DNA from: Methanomassiliicoccales archaeon
GTDB lineage: Archaea; Thermoplasmatota; Thermoplasmata; Methanomassiliicoccales; UBA472
Direction: 5' to 3'
Length of the DNA stretch: 38,720 bases
Assembly (NCBI GenBank): GCA_036504055.1
Contig: DASXVU010000015.1
Location: 1 to 38,720 of the forward strand
Shown here piece after piece: positions 26,107 to 36,850 of this stretch; position 1 is the stretch's first letter, and each line of letters begins with the position of its first letter. The notes under the pieces were generated by a model. That model saw only the letters and a program-made list of their open reading frames with translations, was not told the DNA's origin and searched no databases. The position numbers were made by a program, and so were the translations under genes.

Positions 26107-26685
26107 ATGTTCCATCCAGAGCGTGATTTGAAGTTCATAATCCTCGAACTCCTGACAGATGACGGTCGATCCATCAGCTCACTGTCACGGGAACTGGAGA
26201 AGAACGGTTACGATCTTCACAGATTGATACTTACCGGTTATCTGCGTGCTTTGACAGATCAACACGTGCTCAAGGAGAAGGACGTGCCCCCGGCCAAGAT
26301 CTATGTGCCGGTCAAAGGACGTCAAAAGGACATCTATGATGTTATCGATGAGGCATCCCACGATCTCGCAGAAGGTCGCAGGGCTGAGGAACTGAGCCTC
26401 TATGCGATGTGGCGGCTTTTCAAGCGCCCCATCTTCGCCGAGGAATTGGTCAGGGCAGGTATATCCGGCGAACCTCGGGGAAGACAGGCGACCCAGGAGG
26501 AGCGTCAGGAGGCAAAGAAGGTGCTGGTCCGATCGGGGTTCAAGATCCCTGACAGCAGCCGGGCCTATGTGCCGGAAGCCAGCGATCTAGGTGCAGACTA
26601 TCAGACCCTGCTCGAGACCATCGTCGCGAACCAGCTGGACATATCGTATCTGGTGAGGGAGACCAAGCAGACCAAATTGGTTTGA
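26107..26685 (+). CDS. Winged-helix-like protein, candidate nrdD regulator
   Basis: A 192-residue, charged, soluble protein. The N-terminal part reads like a winged helix: ERDLKFIILELLTDDG, then RSISSLSRELEKNGYD as candidate helix-turn-helix, then TGYLRALTDQHVLKEKDVPP and AKIYVPV as the wing. The middle is helical, and the end has RSGFKIPDSSRAYVPEA and a helix up to the C-terminus. I do not recognise a named family. It is divergent from nrdD, and its ATG lies directly after the TTACCA repeats. Together this suggests an autoregulated transcription factor for nrdD, which is an inference. The mRNA would be nearly leaderless. Confidence 0.7.
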   Translation: MFHPERDLKFIILELLTDDGRSISSLSRELEKNGYDLHRLILTGYLRALTDQHVLKEKDVPPAKIYVPVKGRQKDIYDVIDEASHDLAEGRRAEELSLYAMWRLFKRPIFAEELVRAGISGEPRGRQATQEERQEAKKVLVRSGFKIPDSSRAYVPEASDLGADYQTLLETIVANQLDISYLVRETKQTKLV

Positions 26686-26950: not shown

Positions 26951-27329
26951 TCTTTCAATAATCTTTATTGATATTGGCTGAAAGGCTGTACTCAATTTAT
27001 TAAGACAATTTCCAACATGTTACTCTGACTCTTAAACGTCAATCTCATCTATATCTCGAACGACCTGCCCGACGGGCTCAGCCCTATGTGTCAGTCCCTT
27101 CCCACGCGCCATTCGAGATTCCTTTCCAGGCTCGGCGTCGGTCGCTTTGGAATATTACGGCCGTTTGAGCGGCGTCACCTTCTAAATCCTTCATCATCCT
27201 CTTTATGACCGCGATCCAACGTTTTGTTCTCGCGGCATCGGCAATTTCTCGATAGGAATCAATCTGTCCTAGCACGTTATTGGAGGCGTGTCCCTTTTTG
27301 TCATGCCAGTCAACCGTCGCGAGATAAAG

Positions 27330-27337
27330 GTTATAAT
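27330..27337 (+). promoter_or_regulatory. TATA box of the marker-2-like gene
   Basis: TTATAATC is centred about 26 bases before the ATG at 27360, which predicts a leaderless mRNA and supports that start over an upstream in-frame TTG. Confidence 0.5.
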
Positions 27338-27359
27338 CGCTTCCACGATACACCATACC

Positions 27360-28367
27360 ATGACTCTTAGCGACCTGGTATCCGATCTTAGGGGGTACCC
27401 AGGCATCACCAGGAAGAAGGCCATTTCGAGCGTTATCAACTTCTTCCCCAAGGTCTCATCGTCTAAAGTGCTTGCATCCTATGGTGAAGATGCGGCGGTC
27501 ATGGAGCATAACGGTGAGGCGATGCTGCTTGCTGCTGATGGCATAATGCCGCCGCTGATGAAAGCCAATCCCTTCTTCGCTGGTTACTATGGCGTTCTTG
27601 TAAATATCAATGATATATCGGCCATGGGCGGGATACCCTTGGCCATGCTGGATGTTCTATCCGTCAAGGACGAGAAGGTGTGTGCGAACGTCATGCGAGG
27701 CATGGAGACGGCGGTCAAGAAGTTCGGGGTGCCGATTGTGGGAGGACACACGCATCCGGATTGCACCTATAACGCCATCGACGTGGCGATCGTCGGGACG
27801 GCCAAACTCGACGAGGTCATCTATTCCCATACGGCACTGGCCGGGGACGACATCATCATGGCGACGGACCTGGACGGATTCTATCCCGAGGGTCTGACCT
27901 ATGCCTGGGACACTACGTCGAAGAAGGATTCGATCATTGCCCGCCGTCAAATGCTGATCATGAACAAGATAGCCAAGAAAAAGCTGCTGCGCTCCGGAAA
28001 GGACATCAGCAACCCTGGGTCGCTGGGCACGTTGGGAATGCTGCTGGAGACGAGCGGTAAGGGTGCATCGGTGGACATCAACATGATTCCACGACCGAAA
28101 GGGGTCGATTTCTCCCAATGGCTAAAGTCCTATCAGGGAGCCGGGTTCGTGGTCACCTGCGATCCAAGGCACTCGGAACAGGTCCTCGAGCAGTTCGGCA
28201 CCGTTGGCATAACCGGCGCCGTGGTGGGCAAGGTGGACGGGACGAACGTTTTCAAGGTGACCGACGGCAACGAAACGTCGACCTTGTTCGACCTGAACAT
28301 CGAGAACATAACTGGATGCAAGCCAGCATCCACGGTCGGCTGGGAAGAGATAGGGTCTGGGAAATAA
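27360..28367 (+). CDS. AIR-synthase-like protein, methanogenesis marker 2 family
   Basis: A 335-residue protein of the PurM/SelD/HypE superfamily, most like the family called methanogenesis marker 2. Matching blocks are TRKKAISSVINFF at the start, YGEDAAVMEHNGEAMLLAAD, GYYGVLVNINDISAMGG, GVPIVGGHTHPD with YNAIDVAIVG, GKDISNPGSLGTLGMLLETS and a late WLKSYQGAGFV. The Asp and His residues fit ATP/metal binding in this fold. The reaction is not known. The family is nearly confined to methanogens and close relatives, so it says something about ancestry. It stands alone, with a probable leaderless transcript. Confidence 0.88.
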   Translation: MTLSDLVSDLRGYPGITRKKAISSVINFFPKVSSSKVLASYGEDAAVMEHNGEAMLLAADGIMPPLMKANPFFAGYYGVLVNINDISAMGGIPLAMLDVLSVKDEKVCANVMRGMETAVKKFGVPIVGGHTHPDCTYNAIDVAIVGTAKLDEVIYSHTALAGDDIIMATDLDGFYPEGLTYAWDTTSKKDSIIARRQMLIMNKIAKKKLLRSGKDISNPGSLGTLGMLLETSGKGASVDINMIPRPKGVDFSQWLKSYQGAGFVVTCDPRHSEQVLEQFGTVGITGAVVGKVDGTNVFKVTDGNETSTLFDLNIENITGCKPASTVGWEEIGSGK

Positions 28368-28471
28368 GATCGGTGCATGAACGATCCAATGACCTCGGGG
28401 CGGACGACTCGTTCACGGGATAATACGGGACTCAATTCTCTTCGATAAATGATAGGCGAGTTTGTTACTGG

Positions 28472-28487
28472 CCATCATTGATGATGG
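28472..28487. repeat. Short inverted repeat between genes
   Basis: CCATCATTGATGATGG has 7-base arms around TG. It lies about 105 bases after the marker-2-like gene and 50 bases before the TATA element of the next unit. It could be a terminator stem or an operator; there is no T-run right after it. Confidence 0.3.
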
Positions 28488-28536
28488 TCTGTTTGCGCTT
28501 ATTTATTGCATGGCCGCTATTTTGACGACAATGTAC

Positions 28537-28545
28537 TAAATATAT
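28537..28545 (+). promoter_or_regulatory. TATA box of the two-gene unknown unit
   Basis: TAAATATAT lies about 90 bases before the ATG at 28632. Transcription should begin near 28567, leaving a leader of about 65 nt. GTCGACAC occurs twice nearby, just downstream of the TATA element and again before the gene. Confidence 0.4.
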
Positions 28546-28631
28546 TGAGGTCGACACAAATTATCCAGCATGAACGGTGGCCAAAATATGGTCAAGACTT
28601 TGTCGACACACCAAAGCCGAGATGATTAAGC

Positions 28632-30443
28632 ATGGTATTCACCCAGAACTCAGACCTCTATGCAGCGGTCCAGGATGCTGGCATCAACAGGGTCCTTCAC
28701 CATGTCATGGTGCAAAGGCCGTCTCTATTCAATTACGGGTCGATCCTGCCGGCAGCAAACCCACAGCCCATCTGCAGAGCGATCCCGGCCGTTCCGGCAG
28801 TGGTCCGGGCGCAGAACCCTCTGATGACGGAGATGGACCCGCTGCCTGTCCTCATGACGCCGGCCATTCCGACGATAACGCTTGATTATATCGTCCAGTT
28901 AACGAATGGGGCGATCGACTTTTTCCCGGGCAATGTCTTCAGCCTTCCTCCTGAACTGAACCCACCCCTTTCCGACCAGCATTTCGCTGTTCACTTCGAG
29001 GTGTGCGCCGGATTGATCTGTCAACCGAGGATACGTCTCTGGCCCACTCCTCTTCGACCGATAAAAGAGAACAGGAGGAAGGATGGAAGAACGGACATAA
29101 CCTGCTTTTGCCTAGACCTGTTCGCCACTGGCTCGCTCGGCATAACAGGCCAGCCGGGGGCTCAATCCATCTCGATGAACGTCTCAGGGATTGAGATTCC
29201 TGAACTAAAGCCGGAAGGTATGGAGGAGGCAATCGAATGCTATGCGCTTCTGGTCATGAACAGAGGCATCCTTCCAAAAGCGGCCGAGGCCTTGTCTGCA
29301 TTGGCCTTCCAGGCGATCCCTCTCCCTCAGGGGCTGGGCAGCCTGACCTTATCCGCATCCACTGCGGTCCCGCACAATCCGGCCGTGGAGGACAACCAGT
29401 TCAAGGCGTTCATTAACCTCGACAATATTGAGCTAAACCTGCCACCGCCCGATAATGGGGGAGGTGGATCTTCCGGTTCGGGCGGCGGCACGATTACCCG
29501 AACAACTCGCCCCAGGACCAGGAGCGGGACCTTCGACCTCACCGCCGCCGTTTCGGCGGAAGCGTTCGGCAAGATATTCACCGCGATCGTCAAAGGGTTC
29601 CATTTCGAAAAGTCTGGCAACGGCAGTTACGGACCCTTCTCTGCAAACTATGATGTTGCGGCCCATCTCGAAGGCGGGTCCCTGGAGATGAGGGACGATG
29701 GCACCATCATCATCAAGGAGCTCGATATCAAGTGGGATAAACTGAAGCTCGATATCGGGATCGACATTCCGGAATGGTGCGTCGGGGGCGGGCAGGTGTG
29801 CGTGTTGCCTCCATACCCTTCCTGCGATGTTCCTATCGTGGGGTGCGGGGATTGCGTGACCCTACCGAGCTATTGCTTCTTCTCAGGCAATCCGGACATC
29901 AACATCCCGATCGATCTGAGCGGGCTGATCACCTCCGAGGTCACGATCAGCGGCAGGGTGAGATCATTCTACGGCGTCGGCTCTGGTACGTATAACCGGT
30001 GGCAGATCGTGGTGGTGCCGACACTGCCGCTGGACCTCGACATAATCGATATCGCGGACACCGTCGGAGACCTGTTCAAGAACCTGGTCCAAGGGGGAAT
30101 CGACAATCTGCTCAATTCGCTCGGGGCACCAGGCTGGGCGATCGCCCTGATAGACGGCATCTTGGGAGGGATCGACAACATAATAAGGGTCATCCTGGAC
30201 ATTCCTGATGACATAGGAGAATGGTTGATAGACATGATAAGTCAGATCGGGATCTTCAGCTCGTTGCTGAATGACCTCTATGACTATATCGCCCTCCAGA
30301 TTCCGGCAGTGTTCGAGATAGAGGACCCAAAAACGGTAATGGATCAGGATGGTGCGCTGATACCGGTCAAGATACCCATAGACTTCATCGGGGTCAGCGT
30401 TGATTCCCATGAGATGGTGATACAAGGAGACGTGGGAAATTGA
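28632..30443 (+). CDS. Large uncharacterised protein, possibly TULIP-like
   Basis: A 603-residue protein of unknown function without signal peptide or membrane helix. The N-terminus (DLYAAVQDAGINRVLHHVM, then QRPSLFNYGS) and the middle (YGPFSANYDVAAHLEGGSLE, then IKELDIKWDKLKLDIGIDIP) match a pattern I recall from uncharacterised bacterial proteins. A Gly/Ser-rich linker lies at about 276-290. A Cys-rich patch (residues 382-416, seven Cys) follows DIPEW. Then come IDLSGLITSEVTISGRV, long amphipathic stretches rich in Ile/Leu/Asp, and an ending IPIDFIGVSVDSHEMVIQGD. Alternating long beta strands with amphipathic helices suggest a lipid-binding TULIP-like fold; this is inference. The next gene overlaps its stop, so the two form a unit. 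Confidence 0.75.
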   Translation: MVFTQNSDLYAAVQDAGINRVLHHVMVQRPSLFNYGSILPAANPQPICRAIPAVPAVVRAQNPLMTEMDPLPVLMTPAIPTITLDYIVQLTNGAIDFFPGNVFSLPPELNPPLSDQHFAVHFEVCAGLICQPRIRLWPTPLRPIKENRRKDGRTDITCFCLDLFATGSLGITGQPGAQSISMNVSGIEIPELKPEGMEEAIECYALLVMNRGILPKAAEALSALAFQAIPLPQGLGSLTLSASTAVPHNPAVEDNQFKAFINLDNIELNLPPPDNGGGGSSGSGGGTITRTTRPRTRSGTFDLTAAVSAEAFGKIFTAIVKGFHFEKSGNGSYGPFSANYDVAAHLEGGSLEMRDDGTIIIKELDIKWDKLKLDIGIDIPEWCVGGGQVCVLPPYPSCDVPIVGCGDCVTLPSYCFFSGNPDINIPIDLSGLITSEVTISGRVRSFYGVGSGTYNRWQIVVVPTLPLDLDIIDIADTVGDLFKNLVQGGIDNLLNSLGAPGWAIALIDGILGGIDNIIRVILDIPDDIGEWLIDMISQIGIFSSLLNDLYDYIALQIPAVFEIEDPKTVMDQDGALIPVKIPIDFIGVSVDSHEMVIQGDVGN

Positions 30444-31225
30444 TCACGAAATCTATACTGGACAGATCGATGATTCTTCGAGAGGATGCGATCGACAGCG
30501 GTTCCCTGGCCTCAATGGGCTCGATCATACACAAGGTCACCGAGAGCGGGGACTACCGTGGCGATGTCTACCGCGGGACGGCCAAGGTGGGAACGTTCTA
30601 CTTGACCGTTTCCGAGAATGGCGAGGCGGCTTCGGATTGCGAAAAATCTCCCAGGCAGTTAGACATAGACCTAGCAGGCCTAGATCGTTCTTTGGGAAAA
30701 GCGACAAAGGATTGCGGCAACAGGTTCACACTTCGGGCCGGAGGGAACATAGTGTTCACGGCTCTGTCCGGTTCGGGCGGATACGCGATAGAGCTGCTGC
30801 GCCGGGAGAAGGGAAAAGAATCGGTGAAGGTGTTCGACAGCAGGAAATTGGGAGAAGGCGACCTCTTCATCGTCCACATCATGAGGCCGGGCCTCTATTC
30901 CATCAAGAACACCAACGGAAAGAGACAGACGGAACTGACCGTAGAATATCCAGATCCGGAGAAGCTTCAACTGAAAACGGATCCGTTTCTGGTGGAGTTC
31001 AAAGACGAAGAGATCGTACCGAACAGGATAGTCATACAGCCGGTCCAGGCATTGATGTTCGATCCTAAGGACGAATCCAGGATAACGATTGAATTGAAGA
31101 AGGCGGACGACCGTCCAGCGCCCGTCCGGGTTCCCATAGTCACCCCTTCAAAGGCCCGAAAGAAAAAGTCGCCCGCGGTGGCCGGACAGAAAACGATCCT
31201 TAGAAAGATCCGGTTCTATGGATGA
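30440..31225 (+). CDS. Uncharacterised beta-rich partner protein
   Basis: A 261-residue soluble protein of unknown function. Its TTG start overlaps the stop of the preceding gene and has AAGGAG 10 bases upstream; an ATG at 30470 is an alternative. Predicted mostly beta: GDYRGDVYRGTAKVGTFYLT, FTLRAGGNIVFTALSG, GYAIELLRR and FIVHIMRPGLYSIKNTNG look like successive strands of a sandwich domain. The C-terminal 60 residues end in a basic, Lys/Arg-rich tail (KARKKKSPA). No signal peptide or membrane helix. The tight overlap with the TULIP-like gene suggests that the two products work together. Confidence 0.7.
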   Translation: MITKSILDRSMILREDAIDSGSLASMGSIIHKVTESGDYRGDVYRGTAKVGTFYLTVSENGEAASDCEKSPRQLDIDLAGLDRSLGKATKDCGNRFTLRAGGNIVFTALSGSGGYAIELLRREKGKESVKVFDSRKLGEGDLFIVHIMRPGLYSIKNTNGKRQTELTVEYPDPEKLQLKTDPFLVEFKDEEIVPNRIVIQPVQALMFDPKDESRITIELKKADDRPAPVRVPIVTPSKARKKKSPAVAGQKTILRKIRFYG

Positions 31226-31387
31226 GCCTCATCGATCCGTCGGCATAAGCTCAACAATGACCGACTGGCGCCCCAGCTTCTCGGGCCAGCAGGTCCATCT
31301 TTATCCTTAACGGAATTTATTACAGTGCCAGGCAATATTCGTCATTCCTTGACGAATTAATGTCCCAGTGTTGATTTCAGAAAGAAT

Positions 31388-31708
31388 GAGGTGCTAGGCC
31401 ACAAGGGTGGCCGCTCAGTTTGGCACAGGTGATCCGACCGCTGACTCAGCCCCGCTCCCCTTCGAGCGTAGGTAGTCCACGGTAAGGCTGTTCCCGTCAG
31501 GGCCTGACCCGTTCTCCGTGATCAGAGCAAGGAGCGCAACCCTCCAGCTGCACCCCAGAGCTGCCACCGACCCCGTAGGACAGAGCCTCAACATCAACGG
31601 TTGGGCCTATGCCTCCCCGGATACGACGCCCCTCGTTGTCACCCCCGCTTATCGACGATTTCGGTGTAAAAGGACACGCCGAGCGTCCCGGTCTAGCCTA
31701 GCGCCCCC
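31388..31708 (-). ncRNA. ffs: Signal recognition particle RNA (7S RNA)
   Basis: The RNA of the archaeal signal recognition particle, about 320 nt. The ends pair: GGGGCGCTAGG at the 5' end with CCTAGCACCTC at the 3' end (one mismatch). Near the 5' end are CTCGGCGTGTCC, TTACACCGAAATCG and TCGATAAGCGGGG, the conserved helix 3/4 loops. GGTCGGTGGCAGCTCTGGGG lies in the middle. The SRP54-binding domain is visible as GGGTCAGGCCC, TGAC, GGGAACAGCC. The tetraloop is TGAC instead of the usual GGAA type, and AACAG replaces AGCAG. A TATA box lies at the right distance upstream, and a T-rich stretch follows the 3' end. The exact ends are uncertain by a few bases. Confidence 0.88.
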
Positions 31709-31724
31709 AATTAAGCATACAAGC

Positions 31725-31732
31725 TATTTAAA
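31725..31732. promoter_or_regulatory. Shared TATA element of SRP RNA and lipA
   Basis: TATTTAAA on the plus strand (TTTAAATA on the minus). It sits about 20-25 bases from the 5' end of the SRP RNA and about 43 bases from the lipA ATG, which fits transcription in both directions (lipA start near 31755). I see no other TATA element for either gene. Confidence 0.5.
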
Positions 31733-31770
31733 CGCAATGTATCCCGCTGGCCTAGCCAACAGATGGGGTA

Positions 31771-32739
31771 ATGAAAAACAAAGCACGGTCGACGCAATAC
31801 CAACCTATCCCGAGAGGAAAATTAGTAAAAGCCCCTGGCAACAATATGATGCCCGTGAGTGAATTTACAGCGCTCCCTTTGGCAAAGCCCGATTGGCTGA
31901 GGACGATCGCGGCGGTCGGCGGGGACTTCGATAGGGTTAGGGAAGTGACAAGGAAACATTCCTTGCACACTGTCTGTGATTCTTCCCACTGTCCAAACAT
32001 TCGAGAGTGCTGGTCAGAAAGAAGCGCGACCTTCATGATCCTAGGAGACATGTGCACCCGGCATTGCAGGTTCTGCGCGGTCAACCATGGCGACCCCAAA
32101 GGAGAAAACGATGATTCGGAACCATCAAGGGTCGCCGAGGCCATAAAAGAGCTTGGGTTGAAGTATGTGGTCATAACCAGTGTCACCCGGGATGACCTTA
32201 AGGATGGTGGTGCATCGGCCTTCGCAGAGACGGTCCGAGCGATACGCGAAGTATCGGATTGCCGCGTCGAGCTCCTTATACCGGACCTGTCCGGCAAGGA
32301 GAACGCGCTCCGGGTGCTAGCCGATTCCGTACCGGATGTGATCGGTCACAACATAGAGACCGTCGAGCGCCTCCAAAGGATGGTAAGAGATCCCAGATCC
32401 TCCTATGCCGGGTCGCTGAATTTGTTAGGCTGGCTGAAGGGTTTGTATCCAGATATGGTAACAAAGAGTTCCATGATGCTCGGCCTGGGAGAGACCCGGG
32501 ATGAGACCGTGCGCACAATGTCGGACCTGCGTGCCGTCGGGGTTGACGCGATCGCGATAGGGCAGTACCTTAAACCCAAGGGAGGCAACCTCCCGATTTC
32601 GGAATATGTGGAACCGGCTGCGTTCAAGAGCCTCGAGGAACAAGCTCGTGCCATGGGGTTCCGGTTCATCACGTGTGGACCCTTGGTCCGTACATCTTAC
32701 AAAGCACAGAGGATCCTAGAATTGATCGGAGGGGCATAA
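31771..32739 (+). CDS. lipA: Lipoyl synthase
   Basis: A 322-residue radical-SAM enzyme that inserts two sulfurs into octanoyl groups bound to E2 or H proteins. The auxiliary-cluster Cys are C69, C74 and C80 (VCDSSHCPNIRECW). The radical-SAM cluster Cys are C95, C99 and C102 (CTRHCRFC). MILGDMCT, TSVTRDDLKDGGA, HNIETVERL, TKSSMMLGLGE and the end GPLVRTSYKA complete the family pattern; the last contains the Ser that ligates the auxiliary cluster. It is the bacterial-type enzyme. Its stop lies one base before pdhA, which has GGAGGGG as ribosome binding site. A later ATG at 31846 is a possible alternative start. Confidence 0.95.
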   Translation: MKNKARSTQYQPIPRGKLVKAPGNNMMPVSEFTALPLAKPDWLRTIAAVGGDFDRVREVTRKHSLHTVCDSSHCPNIRECWSERSATFMILGDMCTRHCRFCAVNHGDPKGENDDSEPSRVAEAIKELGLKYVVITSVTRDDLKDGGASAFAETVRAIREVSDCRVELLIPDLSGKENALRVLADSVPDVIGHNIETVERLQRMVRDPRSSYAGSLNLLGWLKGLYPDMVTKSSMMLGLGETRDETVRTMSDLRAVGVDAIAIGQYLKPKGGNLPISEYVEPAAFKSLEEQARAMGFRFITCGPLVRTSYKAQRILELIGGA

Positions 32740-32740
32740 A

Positions 32741-33823
32741 ATGTTGATCGACGATTTCAACCCGCTCGAGGGTAAGATGCTGCAGATACTGAAGACCGAT
32801 GGGACCGTGGTCGAGGGGTTGGACCCGAAGCTCGACGATTCCGTCCTGCTCCAGGCGTACAGGACGATGGTATTGACCCGTGTGGCCGACGAGAAGGCGG
32901 TCAAGCTTCAGAGGCAGGGCCGTTTGGGCGCATACCCTCCTTGCAAGGGTCAGGAGGCGGCTGTGATCGGACCGGCCATGGCGATGAGGAAGGATGACTG
33001 GTTCGTCTGGTCGTTCCGGGAGATGGGCGGTCTCCTTTATCATCAGATACCCCTGATGAGCCAGTTCCTCTACTGGATGGGGAATGAGATGGGCTCACAC
33101 TACCCCGATGACGTTCGCGCCCTGCCTTCCTCCGTCCCGGTAGGGTCGCAGCTCACCCATGCCGTCGGCATTTCCTACGCCGCGAAGCTCCGGGGCGAGG
33201 ACACCGTGTCGGTGGCATTCTTCGGGGACGGGGGCAGTTCGGAAGGCGATTTCCATGAGGCGGCGAACTTTGCCGGGGTGTATCAATGCCCGGTCGTGTT
33301 CGTTTGTCAGAACAACCAGTATGCCATATCCTACCCGCGTAAGTTCCAGACCCGAAGTCCCACCATCGCCCAGAAGGCCGTCTCCTACGGCTTCCCCGGC
33401 ATCCTGGTCGATGGCAACGATATCCTGGGTATGTACGCCGCCGCCAGGGAGGCGGTGGAAAGGGCGCGCAGCGGCCTCGGCCCGACGCTGATCGAGGCCT
33501 ATACATACAGGTTGGGAGACCATACCACATCAGACGATGCCACCAGGTATCGGTTGGAGTCGGAGCTGGCGGAATGGATGCAGAAGGACCCGCTGGACCG
33601 ATTCAACCGGTATCTCGAGGCCAAAGGCATCTGGAACGACGACCTGGAGAATGCGGCAGTGAAGGAAGCGCAGGACGAGGTGGAGAAAGCCGTTTCCGAG
33701 GCAGAGAACTATCCGAAACCGACAGTTGACGAAGTGTTCCGCCACATGTACGCGGAAATGTCGCCAGATATGGTGGAACAGATGGAGCGGATACGGGCTG
33801 AAACGGGCAAGAAGGGGGCGTGA
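32741..33823 (+). CDS. pdhA: 2-oxoacid (pyruvate) dehydrogenase E1 alpha subunit
   Basis: A 360-residue subunit of the thiamine-diphosphate-dependent E1 component, which decarboxylates the 2-oxoacid and passes the acyl group to lipoyl-E2. The N-terminal part RTMVLTRVADEKAVKLQRQG with RLGAYPPCKGQEA is typical of PdhA. The ThDP motif begins FFGDGGSSEGDFHEA and ends in CQNNQYAIS. The phosphorylation-loop region reads YRLGDHTTSDDATRYR. It is more like pyruvate-type than branched-chain-type E1, but archaeal enzymes of this group (for example in Thermoplasma) can favour branched-chain oxoacids, so the substrate is open. Operon lipA-pdhA-pdhB-pdhC. Confidence 0.94.
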   Translation: MLIDDFNPLEGKMLQILKTDGTVVEGLDPKLDDSVLLQAYRTMVLTRVADEKAVKLQRQGRLGAYPPCKGQEAAVIGPAMAMRKDDWFVWSFREMGGLLYHQIPLMSQFLYWMGNEMGSHYPDDVRALPSSVPVGSQLTHAVGISYAAKLRGEDTVSVAFFGDGGSSEGDFHEAANFAGVYQCPVVFVCQNNQYAISYPRKFQTRSPTIAQKAVSYGFPGILVDGNDILGMYAAAREAVERARSGLGPTLIEAYTYRLGDHTTSDDATRYRLESELAEWMQKDPLDRFNRYLEAKGIWNDDLENAAVKEAQDEVEKAVSEAENYPKPTVDEVFRHMYAEMSPDMVEQMERIRAETGKKGA

Positions 33824-33826
33824 GAC

Positions 33827-34804
33827 ATGGCATCCATGAACATGGTGCAGGCCATCAACTCCGCGTTGGCGTTGGAGATGGAGCGGGACCCGAGCATGGT
33901 GATGCTCGGTGAGGATATCGGCGTGGACGGCGGAGTGTTCCGCGTGACCGAAGGGCTACAGAAGCGGTTCGGTCCAGCCAGGGTCATAGACACGCCGCTC
34001 GCGGAGGGCGGGATAATCGGCATGTCCATCGGCATGGCGATCAATGGGCTGAGGCCGGTGGCAGAGATCCAGTTCATGGGCTTCTCCTATCCGGCGATGA
34101 ACCAGCTGATCTCCCATGCCTCCCGGATGAGGAACCGGACCCGGAGCCGTCTGACCGTTCCCATGGTGATGCGCATGCCCTACGGGGCGGGGGTGAAGGC
34201 CCTGGAGCACCATTCGGAGAGCACGGAAGCGCTCTTTGTTCATATTCCCGGACTTAAGGTGGTCGTGCCGTCCACTCCTTTGGAGGCGAAAGGTCTGCTG
34301 ACCGCCTCGATAAGGGACCCGGACCCGGTGATCTTCCTGGAACCTACGCGAAGCTACCGCATGCTCAAGGAGGAGGTACCGGACGGGGAGTATGTGATCC
34401 CGCTCGGAAAGGCCAGGATGGTCCAGGAGGGAAAGGACCTGACCCTGATCGGATGGGGGGCGATGATGGTGCAGATACAGAAGGCGGTCGACGAGGCGGC
34501 CAAGAAGGGAATATCCTGCGAGGTCATCGACATGCGCACCCTGTCGCCGATGGACTCCGCCACGGTGGTGGAGTCGGTGAAACGCACCGGAAGGGCGATC
34601 GTGGTGCAGGAAGCTCCCAAGACCTGCGGCGTCGGAGCGGAGATCGTCGCCAGGATCAATGAGAAGGCGTTGCTCTCATTGCAGGCGCCGGTGGCCAGGG
34701 TGGCCGGGCCGGACATCATCGTGCCGCTGCCCAAGGGCGAGGACTATTACTACATATCACCGGAGAGGATATTGGCCGAGATCGAAAGGACGGTCTCGTT
34801 CTGA
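33827..34804 (+). CDS. pdhB: 2-oxoacid (pyruvate) dehydrogenase E1 beta subunit
   Basis: A 325-residue partner of E1 alpha; together they form the alpha2-beta2 enzyme. Family blocks are MNMVQAINSALALEMERDPS, MLGEDIGVDGGVFRVTEGLQ, DTPLAEGGIIGMSIGMAING, AEIQFMGFSYPAMNQL, HHSESTEALFVHIPGLKVVV and FLEPTRSYR. The C-terminal transketolase-like domain has SCEVIDMRTLSPMD and VVQEAPKTCGVGAEI. Its ATG follows the pdhA stop by 3 bases. Length is normal. Confidence 0.95.
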   Translation: MASMNMVQAINSALALEMERDPSMVMLGEDIGVDGGVFRVTEGLQKRFGPARVIDTPLAEGGIIGMSIGMAINGLRPVAEIQFMGFSYPAMNQLISHASRMRNRTRSRLTVPMVMRMPYGAGVKALEHHSESTEALFVHIPGLKVVVPSTPLEAKGLLTASIRDPDPVIFLEPTRSYRMLKEEVPDGEYVIPLGKARMVQEGKDLTLIGWGAMMVQIQKAVDEAAKKGISCEVIDMRTLSPMDSATVVESVKRTGRAIVVQEAPKTCGVGAEIVARINEKALLSLQAPVARVAGPDIIVPLPKGEDYYYISPERILAEIERTVSF

Positions 34805-34814
34805 GGTGTTCAAG

Positions 34815-36098
34815 ATGACGACTGACTACAAGTTCCCCGACCTCGGCGAGGGTGTGACCGAGGGCGAGATCAAGAAATGGCTGGTGAAAGAGGGCGACGC
34901 GGTCGCAAAGGACCAGGCGTTGGCCGAGGTGGAGACGGACAAGGCGGTGGTGGAGATGCCATCGCCGGTGGCCGGGATCGTCCTGAAGATGAACCATAAG
35001 GAAGGCGACCTGGTCAAGGTCGGCGAGGTACTGGTGGTGATCGGAGACAAGGGGGAGGCCGTTCCCGCTGCCGCCGTTGCGCCGGAGGCCCCGATCGTAC
35101 CGGAACCGGCCGAAGGCGCCAGGAAACCGTCATATTCGGTGGTCGGCGAGCTTCCGACGGAAGAGGTGAACGTCTCCTCCACCGGAAAGTTGACAGAGGC
35201 GAAACCGTCCGTCGCGGTGCAGGCGACCCCGGCGGTGCGGAAGGCGGCCAAGGACCTGGGCGTCGACATCGCGACGGTCAAGGGGTCCGGTCCCAATGGA
35301 AGGGTCACCGAGGAGGATGTCAAGAAGGCCAAGGAGACGCCCCCTGCCAAGGCGGAGACGCCGCACATGAGAACGGCGCCCAAGTTCGACCTCTATGGCT
35401 GGGTGGACCGGGTCCCCCTGCGGGGCATCCGGAGAACCACGGCCAAGCACATGATCGAGTCCCAGACCAGGGCGGCCCAGGTGACCTCCATGGACCAGGC
35501 GGACGTTACCGCCCTCTTCGCGCTGCGGGAGAAGGTGAAGAAGGAGGTTCTGGAGCAAAGGAAAGTGAACGTGACCTTCATGCCCTTCATCGTGAAGGCG
35601 GTGGTCATGGCGCTGAAATCCAATCCGTCCCTCAATGCCTCGGTTAACGAGGAGGAGACGGAGATCCTGGTCAAGAAGTACTACAACATCGGCATCGCGG
35701 TGGCCATCGACGACGGGCTGATCGTCCCGGTGGTCAAGATGGCTGACCAGAAGGGCATCGTCGACCTGGCCGAGGAGATACACAATCTCGCGGAGCTGGC
35801 GAACTCGCGCAAGATCGACATGGCGGACCTGAGGGGCGGCACCTTCACCATCACCAACTACGGGGCGTTCGGCACGACCTATGGCACACCGATCATCAAC
35901 TATCCCGAGGCGGCGATACTGGGAACTGGGAAGATCGTGGACACGCCGATGGTCATCGACGGCAAGATCGAGGCACGGAAGATGCTCCCGCTGTCTCTGA
36001 CGTTCGACCACCGGGCGCTTGACGGCGCCGGGGCGGCGAAGTTCATGAACGACCTGAAGAAATGGCTGGAGAATCCCGAGGCTTTGCTGCTGCTCTAG
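34815..36098 (+). CDS. pdhC: Dihydrolipoamide acyltransferase E2
   Basis: A 427-residue core component that carries acyl groups on lipoyl-lysine to CoA. The lipoyl domain (residues 1-80) has Lys 43 in VETDKAVVEM. An Ala/Pro/Glu linker follows, then the peripheral-subunit-binding domain (about 133-172: ATPAVRKAAKDLGVDI, GPNGRVTEEDVKKA), a second linker, and the catalytic domain from about 195 (VPLRGIRRTTAKHMIESQTR). The active-site motif is FDHRALDGA, with His 399 and Asp 403. One lipoyl domain only. ATG chosen at 34815 with GAGGTG upstream. The E3 dehydrogenase is not encoded nearby. Its stop overlaps that of the convergent lplA. Confidence 0.95.
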   Translation: MTTDYKFPDLGEGVTEGEIKKWLVKEGDAVAKDQALAEVETDKAVVEMPSPVAGIVLKMNHKEGDLVKVGEVLVVIGDKGEAVPAAAVAPEAPIVPEPAEGARKPSYSVVGELPTEEVNVSSTGKLTEAKPSVAVQATPAVRKAAKDLGVDIATVKGSGPNGRVTEEDVKKAKETPPAKAETPHMRTAPKFDLYGWVDRVPLRGIRRTTAKHMIESQTRAAQVTSMDQADVTALFALREKVKKEVLEQRKVNVTFMPFIVKAVVMALKSNPSLNASVNEEETEILVKKYYNIGIAVAIDDGLIVPVVKMADQKGIVDLAEEIHNLAELANSRKIDMADLRGGTFTITNYGAFGTTYGTPIINYPEAAILGTGKIVDTPMVIDGKIEARKMLPLSLTFDHRALDGAGAAKFMNDLKKWLENPEALLLL

Positions 36099-36850
36099 CG
36101 CGACCGTGTCCAGGTGTCGTTGCCGTAGCGCTCGTTCGCTATGGCCTCGGCGCGGGACAGCTCGTCCTGGGTCAACGGTCCGAGGTACCAGTCCTTACCC
36201 TCCGCGAACGCAGAGGCCAGGGCGGCCAGGATATCGTTCTTGGTGGCCTTCGATTCCCTCGAGACCGACGTTACCAGGTCCATTGGGTCCGACGCGCCCT
36301 TGGAAGCGACCTTTTCCCGGTCGACCTTGAGCACTGAGAACATGACCTCCGGGTCCACGCTGTAAAGGACCGTCCCATGCTGAGTAAAGATCCCGGACCG
36401 CCTGGTCTGGGCGGAACCGGATATCTTCCTGCCGTTGACGGTTATATCGTTTATCGGCCGGAACTCCGCGTCTATGCCAACGGTCTTCAGGCCCTTGACG
36501 ACATAGCCGCAGATCTGGCGGTAGGCGGCGTTGATATCCTTGTCGACCATGGTCTCGGGGCAGATGACGCTGTAGGTGATCTCTCCCTCCTTGTCATGAT
36601 AGACCGCCCCTCCTCCGGTACGCCGACGAACGATGTCGATCCCGAGCTCCTCGCACCGCTTCACGTCGACCTCGTCCTCCAGGTTCTGGAAGCAGCCGAT
36701 GGATACTGAGCTGGGATCCCATCCGTAGAACCTGATTGTCGGACCGGCCTCATTGAACGAGACCATCTCCGCTATCGCCTCGTCGATGGCCATGTTCATC
36801 TTTGCTGGATGTGTTTCATACCGCAGTAATCTCCATCGTTGGTTCAACAT
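36095..36850 (-). CDS. lplA: Lipoate-protein ligase A, catalytic subunit
   Basis: A 251-residue ligase that adenylates lipoate and attaches it to the E2 lysine. RFYGWDPSSVSIGCFQN and the lipoyl-AMP motif RRRTGGGAVYHD (75-86) identify it, followed by EITYSVI, ITVNGRKISGSAQTRRSGIF and QHGTVLYSVDPE. It lacks the C-terminal accessory domain of bacterial LplA; that part is the separate LplB, as in Thermoplasma. Its ATG overlaps the lplB stop by 7 bases. Its target, pdhC, lies directly downstream on the opposite strand, so function and position agree. Confidence 0.94.
   Translation of the reverse strand: MLNQRWRLLRYETHPAKMNMAIDEAIAEMVSFNEAGPTIRFYGWDPSSVSIGCFQNLEDEVDVKRCEELGIDIVRRRTGGGAVYHDKEGEITYSVICPETMVDKDINAAYRQICGYVVKGLKTVGIDAEFRPINDITVNGRKISGSAQTRRSGIFTQHGTVLYSVDPEVMFSVLKVDREKVASKGASDPMDLVTSVSRESKATKNDILAALASAFAEGKDWYLGPLTQDELSRAEAIANERYGNDTWTRSR

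What the first reader, a model, noticed from the sequence alone, without database searches (positions are those of the whole stretch)
28632..31225. Two-gene unit of unknown function, possibly TULIP-like plus a beta-sandwich partner
Two overlapping genes encode a 603-residue protein and a 261-residue protein with no recognised domain. The first has amphipathic helical stretches, alternating long strands, a seven-Cys patch (residues 382-416), a Gly/Ser linker and an ending that looks like lipid-binding TULIP/P47-type proteins. I recall similar uncharacterised proteins mainly from bacteria, so the unit may be horizontally acquired. Neither has a secretion signal, although its predicted character is that of a lipid or surface binder. 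This is the best candidate for an undescribed system here.
Basis: partly seen in the sequence, partly recalled or inferred. Interest (0 to 1): 0.72.

Follow-up and report, generated by a model that had tools for sequence, protein, structure and literature searches.

The report
Mobile TULIP-like and cupredoxin-like gene cassette
A methanogen-order archaeon carries a small horizontally inherited gene cassette, shared with scattered bacteria and a prophage, that encodes two probable lipid-tube (TULIP-like) modules and a copper-less double cupredoxin-like partner; it would be an undescribed TULIP family with a fixed partner protein.

Summary
The two genes are real and belong together. Gene A (28632-30443, 603 aa) and gene B (30440-31225, 261 aa) match no Pfam, NCBIfam, PHROGs or PADLOC model. 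Relatives turned up in 17 loci: Methanomassiliicoccales, Hydrogenophaga, a gammaproteobacterium, Anaerolineae, a distant relative in the Hydrogenophaga family group, and a lambda-like prophage contig. The AlphaFold model of A is weak (pLDDT 53), but its top 13 Foldseek hits in the PDB are all TULIP proteins (best LBP, E 5e-4). B resembles plastocyanin/cupredoxin by profile (E 7e-4; hhalign 1e-7). It holds one full unit and one unit split between its two ends, without copper ligands. In the window the cassette is an insertion between the methanogenesis-marker-2 gene and the SRP RNA, which are about 25 bp apart in relatives. No gene outside the trio is conserved. Best reading: a mobile three-module complex that binds a hydrophobic ligand. 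Ligand, location and benefit remain unknown. The TULIP guess is supported but not proven; the Cys patch has six Cys, not seven.

The parts
28632..30443 (+). Gene A: fused A1-A2 protein, 603 aa, TULIP-like
   Evidence: ORF; relatives; Foldseek top 13 hits TULIP
28632..29429 (+). A1 module (aa ~1-266); a separate gene in most bacterial relatives, with the conserved motif QRPSLFNY
29430..29531 (+). Gly/Ser-rich linker (aa ~267-300), the fusion joint; in bacteria this place holds a stop, an SD and a new ATG (MAHLT...)
   Evidence: (junction sequences); independent poly-Gly fusion in L044
29532..30440 (+). A2 module (aa ~301-603): helix, long strands, then amphipathic helices
29778..29876 (+). Six-Cys patch (aa 383-415); four Cys columns conserved in at least 90% of relatives, including the most distant; missing only in L014
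30440..31225 (+). Gene B: 261 aa all-beta, cupredoxin-like double unit without copper ligands
30424..30430 (+). Shine-Dalgarno-like AAGGAGA for gene B, inside the end of gene A
   Evidence: sequence
30482..30604 (+). B residues 15-55: matches the C-terminal half of a cupredoxin
   Evidence: hhalign prob 87, E 3.9e-6
30728..30946 (+). B residues 97-169: matches a nearly full cupredoxin, copper ligands absent
   Evidence: hhalign prob 94, E 1.4e-7; plastocyanin E 7e-4
30980..31069 (+). B residues 181-210: weakly matches the N-terminal half of a cupredoxin, complementary to residues 15-55
   Evidence: third hit, weak, prob 1.6; internal repeat
28368..31391 (.). Inserted segment: in relatives the marker-2 gene ends about 25 bp from the SRP RNA
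31392..31703 (-). Archaeal SRP RNA (RF01857), the conserved right-hand neighbour of the insertion
27288..28367 (+). Methanogenesis marker 2 protein gene (AIRS family), the conserved left-hand neighbour

Best explanation
A and B are a small, horizontally mobile cassette encoding one protein complex. Shown: A1, A2 and B are conserved together and in order; A is a fusion of A1 and A2; B is a copper-less cupredoxin-type beta-sandwich; the cassette is an insertion in this genome. Strongly suggested, not proven: A1 and A2 are TULIP-type domains. Inferred: A1 and A2 pair into a tube, as the two halves of BPI/LBP do, and hold a hydrophobic ligand (a lipid, isoprenoid or similar); the amphipathic helices that end A2 dock on membranes; B is a fixed partner that stabilises the pair or recognises the target. 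With no secretion signal in any member, the complex works in the cytosol or leaves the cell by lysis or another non-Sec route. It is an accessory function gained and lost readily, not part of methanogen housekeeping.
For: Three profile HMMs find A1-A2-B in the same order and strand in every locus with the genes largely intact, including the two most diverged, L047 and L048. In 199 Anaerolineae genomes all seven strong B hits fall in genomes that also have A1. A1 and A2 are separate genes with their own SD in most bacteria and fused in archaea and, separately, in L044. Foldseek of A against the PDB: LBP E 5.3e-4, then BPI, SPLUNC1, JHBP, Der f 7 and CETP, 13 of 13 TULIP; B's search and the viral library give none. 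B: plastocyanin E 7.3e-4; its sub-threshold hits in Anaerolineae are Pfam-confirmed Copper-bind proteins; hhalign E 1.4e-7. Mobility: insertion between marker-2 gene and SRP RNA; ISCR-type transposase remnants in direct repeat on both sides of the L048 cassette; copy inside a prophage; 65% identity between the window and Methanosarcina; decayed copies in L013 and L020.
Against: The model of A is poor (mean pLDDT 52.8, pTM 0.39; TM-scores 0.1-0.25), so the TULIP call rests on agreement of the hits, not on a good superposition. hhalign finds no link between A1 and A2 or to one DUF4403 TULIP sequence, a weak test. No complex was predicted. GC content of A and B equals the surroundings, so composition does not support a recent arrival. 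No conserved neighbour hints at a pathway.
Confidence: 0.5

Rival explanations
1. A prophage or mobile-element cargo ('moron') whose product acts on the envelope of the host or of competitors, for example exclusion of other phages or a bacteriocin-like complex released on lysis.
For: One copy lies inside a lambda-like prophage contig between terminase and portal genes, on the opposite strand; patchy distribution, IS remnants and decayed copies; no secretion signal.
Against: Only one of 17 intact loci is phage-linked; no relatives in 50,697 phage records or in plasmids; no PADLOC match.
Confidence: 0.2
2. A distant functional parallel of the OrfX/P47 sets: TULIP proteins without a signal peptide that accompany a secreted partner protein.
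For: Same fold class by Foldseek (OrfX1-OrfX3 structure at rank 30); several small TULIP-type genes in a row; OrfX2 and P47 are TULIP and bind lipid in vitro (PMC7020563, PMC6791001).
Against: No Pfam hit to P47 or OrfX at E<=1 or, for distant members, E<=10; no toxin-like or other conserved gene next to the cassette in any locus; different gene content.
Confidence: 0.12
3. A1 and A2 are not TULIP domains but another long-stranded alpha/beta fold; the Foldseek ranking reflects generic long strands plus a helix.
For: Low-confidence model; top TM-scores at most 0.25; hhalign sees no link to a DUF4403 sequence.
Against: All of the first 13 hits are TULIP, from six different TULIP proteins, and the best alignment (611 columns against LBP, 448 residues) is long enough to take in both halves of A.
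Confidence: 0.2
4. A metal- or redox-related factor: the conserved Cys of A1 and A2 bind a metal and B is a former copper protein acting as metallochaperone or assembly factor.
For: Four Cys columns of A2 and three of A1 are conserved in nearly all relatives; B derives from a copper-binding fold.
Against: B lacks all copper ligands; the A2 Cys patch is absent in L014, whose A and B are otherwise intact.
Confidence: 0.08

Closest known systems
TULIP superfamily (BPI/LBP/CETP, SPLUNC1, JHBP/Takeout, Der p 7, SMP)
   Same: Predicted helix, long strands, long helix layout in both halves of A; the 13 best Foldseek hits; two modules in tandem as in BPI/LBP
   Different: No detectable sequence similarity; the two modules are separate genes in most bacteria; no signal peptide; conserved Cys clusters; fixed cupredoxin-like partner
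Known bacterial TULIP families: YceB/DUF1439, DUF4403, DUF2140, DUF2993, P47/OrfX2 (PMC6791001)
   Same: Prokaryotic, TULIP-like
   Different: None of their HMMs matches A1 or A2; YceB, DUF4403 and DUF2993 carry export signals or lipid anchors, this family has none; archaeal members exist here
Cupredoxins (plastocyanin/azurin, PF00127, PF13473)
   Same: B's residues 97-169 align over nearly the whole cupredoxin, including the FDSxxLxxGDxFxxxxxxPGxYxY stretch
   Different: No copper ligands; a second unit split between the two ends of the protein; no signal peptide
OrfX1/OrfX3 and P47 (accessory proteins of some toxin clusters)
   Same: Small TULIP-type proteins in a row, no signal peptide
   Different: No sequence match, no associated toxin gene, other organisms

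Membership tests
TULIP superfamily | Elongated curled beta-sheet around a long helix | tested here: inconclusive
   Foldseek: 13 of 13 best PDB hits TULIP, best E 5.3e-4, prob 0.87, but model pLDDT 52.8 and TM at most 0.25
TULIP superfamily | Internal hydrophobic pocket that binds lipid | not testable with these tools
   Needs a confident structure and a ligand assay
Named TULIP families in Pfam (BPI/LBP, SMP, JHBP, DUF1439, DUF4403, DUF2140, DUF2993, P47) | HMM match above the curated cut-off | tested here: not met
   0 Pfam families at E<=1 for A; none at E<=10 for distant A1 and A2; one DUF4403 sequence by hhalign, no match
OrfX/P47 cluster | orfX1-3 and p47 gene set beside a toxin gene | tested here: not met
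   Neighbours read in the fetched loci; no such genes seen
Cupredoxin | Cupredoxin beta-sandwich sequence signature | tested here: met
   Profile A11 vs PDB: plastocyanin E 7.3e-4; hhalign vs Pfam-confirmed cupredoxins E 1.4e-7; model all-beta
Cupredoxin | Type-1 copper site (His, Cys, His, Met) | tested here: not met
   Ligand positions are not conserved and hold other residues in the window and across A11
Anti-phage defence system | Match to a known defence protein model | tested here: not met
   PADLOC, no hit at E<=1

The most novel reading that the evidence does not exclude
An undescribed, horizontally mobile three-component system in archaea and bacteria: two TULIP-type subunits plus an interdigitated, copper-less double cupredoxin form one complex that binds and moves a hydrophobic molecule in the cytosol or after release from the cell. 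It would be the first archaeal TULIP family and a new way of using the cupredoxin fold.
Probability: 0.4. Interest if true: 0.72.

Novelty: new variant of a known kind. Interest (0 to 1): 0.55.

Why it matters
[quoted passage not shown] A TULIP family shared by archaea and bacteria, cytosolic by sequence, with A1 and A2 as separate genes and as fusions, would be a natural test of how the two-barrel BPI-type architecture arises. The invariant partner B gives a concrete hypothesis (one complex) that can be tested by co-expression.

Tried and rejected
L012 (viral contig) is a chance match to an ILDIPDD pattern; L008 in G075 (E 1.7e-4) was not confirmed by the larger profiles. The phmmer hits of B to designed 'Pizza' propeller proteins vanished with a family profile. 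A1 against A2 by hhalign: no detectable repeat. Shared neighbouring genes were looked for in the fetched loci: none outside the trio. Target-site duplication at the window insertion: none found. Composition as a sign of transfer: no difference. Searches of phage and plasmid records: nothing. Whole-genome codon analysis was not possible. Foldseek of A against viral structures: nothing below E 1e-3.

Full report
What is there. The window is contig C15 of a genome of the order Methanomassiliicoccales (kinship of G029; the same contig is named Methanomassiliicoccus QR_Bin.16). An AAGGAGA motif lies before B's start. Neither has a family assignment in Pfam, NCBIfam, PHROGs or PADLOC, and no PDB sequence relative is convincing for the single proteins. 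The Cys patch has six, not seven, cysteines.

Relatives. A protein search of 101 related genomes found one other carrier, G029. A viral-contig scan found a lambda-like prophage contig, L006/L011, with terminase, head-tail joining and portal genes. The genome scan found Methanosarcina sp. DH2, three Hydrogenophaga, a gammaproteobacterial MAG and two Anaerolineae. Profile searches added further Anaerolineae (11 of 249 genomes, some of the hits mere fragments) and a distant relative, G689, in the family of Hydrogenophaga. Frequencies elsewhere are low: 3 of 400 genomes in the window's class, one of these unconfirmed, 1 of 185 in the gammaproteobacterial group and 1 of 200 in the order of G689, each being the query's own genome.

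Three modules, not two. In most bacterial loci A is split at the place of the window's Gly/Ser linker. A1 ends with a stop; A2 begins a few bases later with its own ribosome-binding site and the start MAHLT. The archaeal proteins are fusions of the two, and L044 (Anaerolineae) has another fusion with a poly-glycine linker. B follows A2 in all 17 loci where the genes are largely intact: window, L014, L011, L015-L019, L038-L044, L047, L048; L039 and L043 carry a frameshift or stop. L047 and L048 are so diverged that only profiles recognise them, yet keep the same three-gene order. Among 199 Anaerolineae genomes the seven strong B hits (E<=1e-51) all lie in genomes with A1. This co-conservation over archaea, Pseudomonadota and Chloroflexota, with no other shared neighbour, is the best evidence that A1, A2 and B act together.

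Fold of A. The AlphaFold model from 15 sequences is poor overall (pLDDT 52.8), with a better core in A2, and shows helix, long strands, long helix in both halves. Foldseek against the PDB returns LBP at E 5.3e-4, then BPI, SPLUNC1, JHBP, LBP again, Der f 7 and CETP: the first 13 hits are all TULIP proteins. The B model gave no TULIP hit, and the viral library nothing below E 1e-3. I take TULIP as likely, not shown. A is in no known TULIP family by HMM, including the bacterial ones listed in PMC6791001 (YceB, DUF4403, DUF2140, DUF2993, P47/OrfX2); a profile comparison with one DUF4403 protein fetched for this purpose also failed. The two TULIP papers I could read do not mention archaeal members; PMC5507252 only says that archaeal sequences remain to be mined.

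Fold of B. The model is all-beta (pLDDT 78); Foldseek gives only generic FN3/Ig hits. A profile including the distant relatives finds plastocyanin (E 7.3e-4), and its sub-threshold matches in Anaerolineae are copper proteins; two of the three were confirmed by Pfam Copper-bind. hhalign against these maps residues 97-169 to nearly the whole cupredoxin (prob 94, E 1.4e-7), residues 15-55 to its C-terminal half (prob 87) and, weakly, residues 181-210 to its N-terminal half. A self-comparison shows the same internal repeat. The simplest reading is two cupredoxin units, one nested inside the other, whose two halves sit at the ends of the protein. The copper ligands are absent.

Mobility. In six same-family genomes without the cassette, the methanogenesis-marker-2 gene and lipoyl synthase lie about 450-520 bp apart by match ends, with the SRP RNA between them and its end close behind the marker-2 gene. 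In the window the same gap is 3.0 kb longer and holds only A, B and their flanks, so it is an insertion of about 28368-31391. No integrase, repeat or duplication was found. In L048 the cassette stands between two direct copies of an ISCR-type transposase remnant. In Methanosarcina the gene is broken by an IS5 element and B is missing; the copy in H. pseudoflava has decayed. Trees group the three archaeal sequences with full support, and the window's A is 65% identical to that of Methanosarcina over 545 residues, although the two belong to different phyla. Transfer is thus likely, but base composition gives no sign of it.

How it probably works. Inferred: A1 and A2 form a BPI-like two-barrel tube for a hydrophobic ligand, with A2's terminal amphipathic helices touching membranes, and B as partner. 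No member has an N-terminal hydrophobic signal. Which molecule is bound, and whether the complex leaves the cell, cannot be told here. Rivals (prophage cargo acting on envelopes, OrfX-like accessory set, a different fold, a metal factor) are listed with tests.

Verdict. A real, undescribed and conserved unit; new family within a known fold class, with a new partner arrangement. Interest 0.55, mainly because the function is open and the TULIP call needs a better model.

Noticed in passing
window 31392-31703 (-): Archaeal SRP RNA gene (RF01857, 162 bits), read by the ORF list as a spurious conserved frame (31518-31862).
   Followed up: yes
window 31771-36850: Lipoyl synthase, pyruvate dehydrogenase E1 alpha and beta, lipoyl-domain acyltransferase E2 and a lipoate ligase together in a Methanomassiliicoccales genome; a PDH-type complex is unexpected in a methanogen order. 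Lipoyl synthase has a match in 20 of 31 relatives (one of these only at E 5e-4).
   Followed up: partly
L011:5319-6308: Next gene after the cassette in the prophage: 329 aa, weak Big_1 match, ending that looks like a metallopeptidase of the MepA/M15 kind (from memory); possible fourth member or phage lysis/tail gene.
   Followed up: partly
L011:7070-8775: The terminase large subunit of this prophage contig is split over two frames, so the prophage may be decaying or the assembly faulty.
   Followed up: no
L045, L046, L091: Isolated fragments of A1 (L045, L046) and B (L091) in Anaerolineae genomes, probably remnants of lost cassettes.
   Followed up: partly
window 31136-31222, last ~30 aa of B: B ends in a basic, Pro-rich tail in most relatives; absent in L014, L047 and L048.
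   Followed up: no
window 26107-26685: 192-aa ORF upstream of the marker-2 gene with no family above cut-off (weak ubiquitin-like match, E 0.006).
   Followed up: no
L082 (G015), L083 (G029): The same marker-2/lipoyl-synthase gap holds other cargo in relatives: an ABC-transporter-type gene set in G015 and other genes in G029, so the gap looks like a recurrent insertion place.
   Followed up: partly
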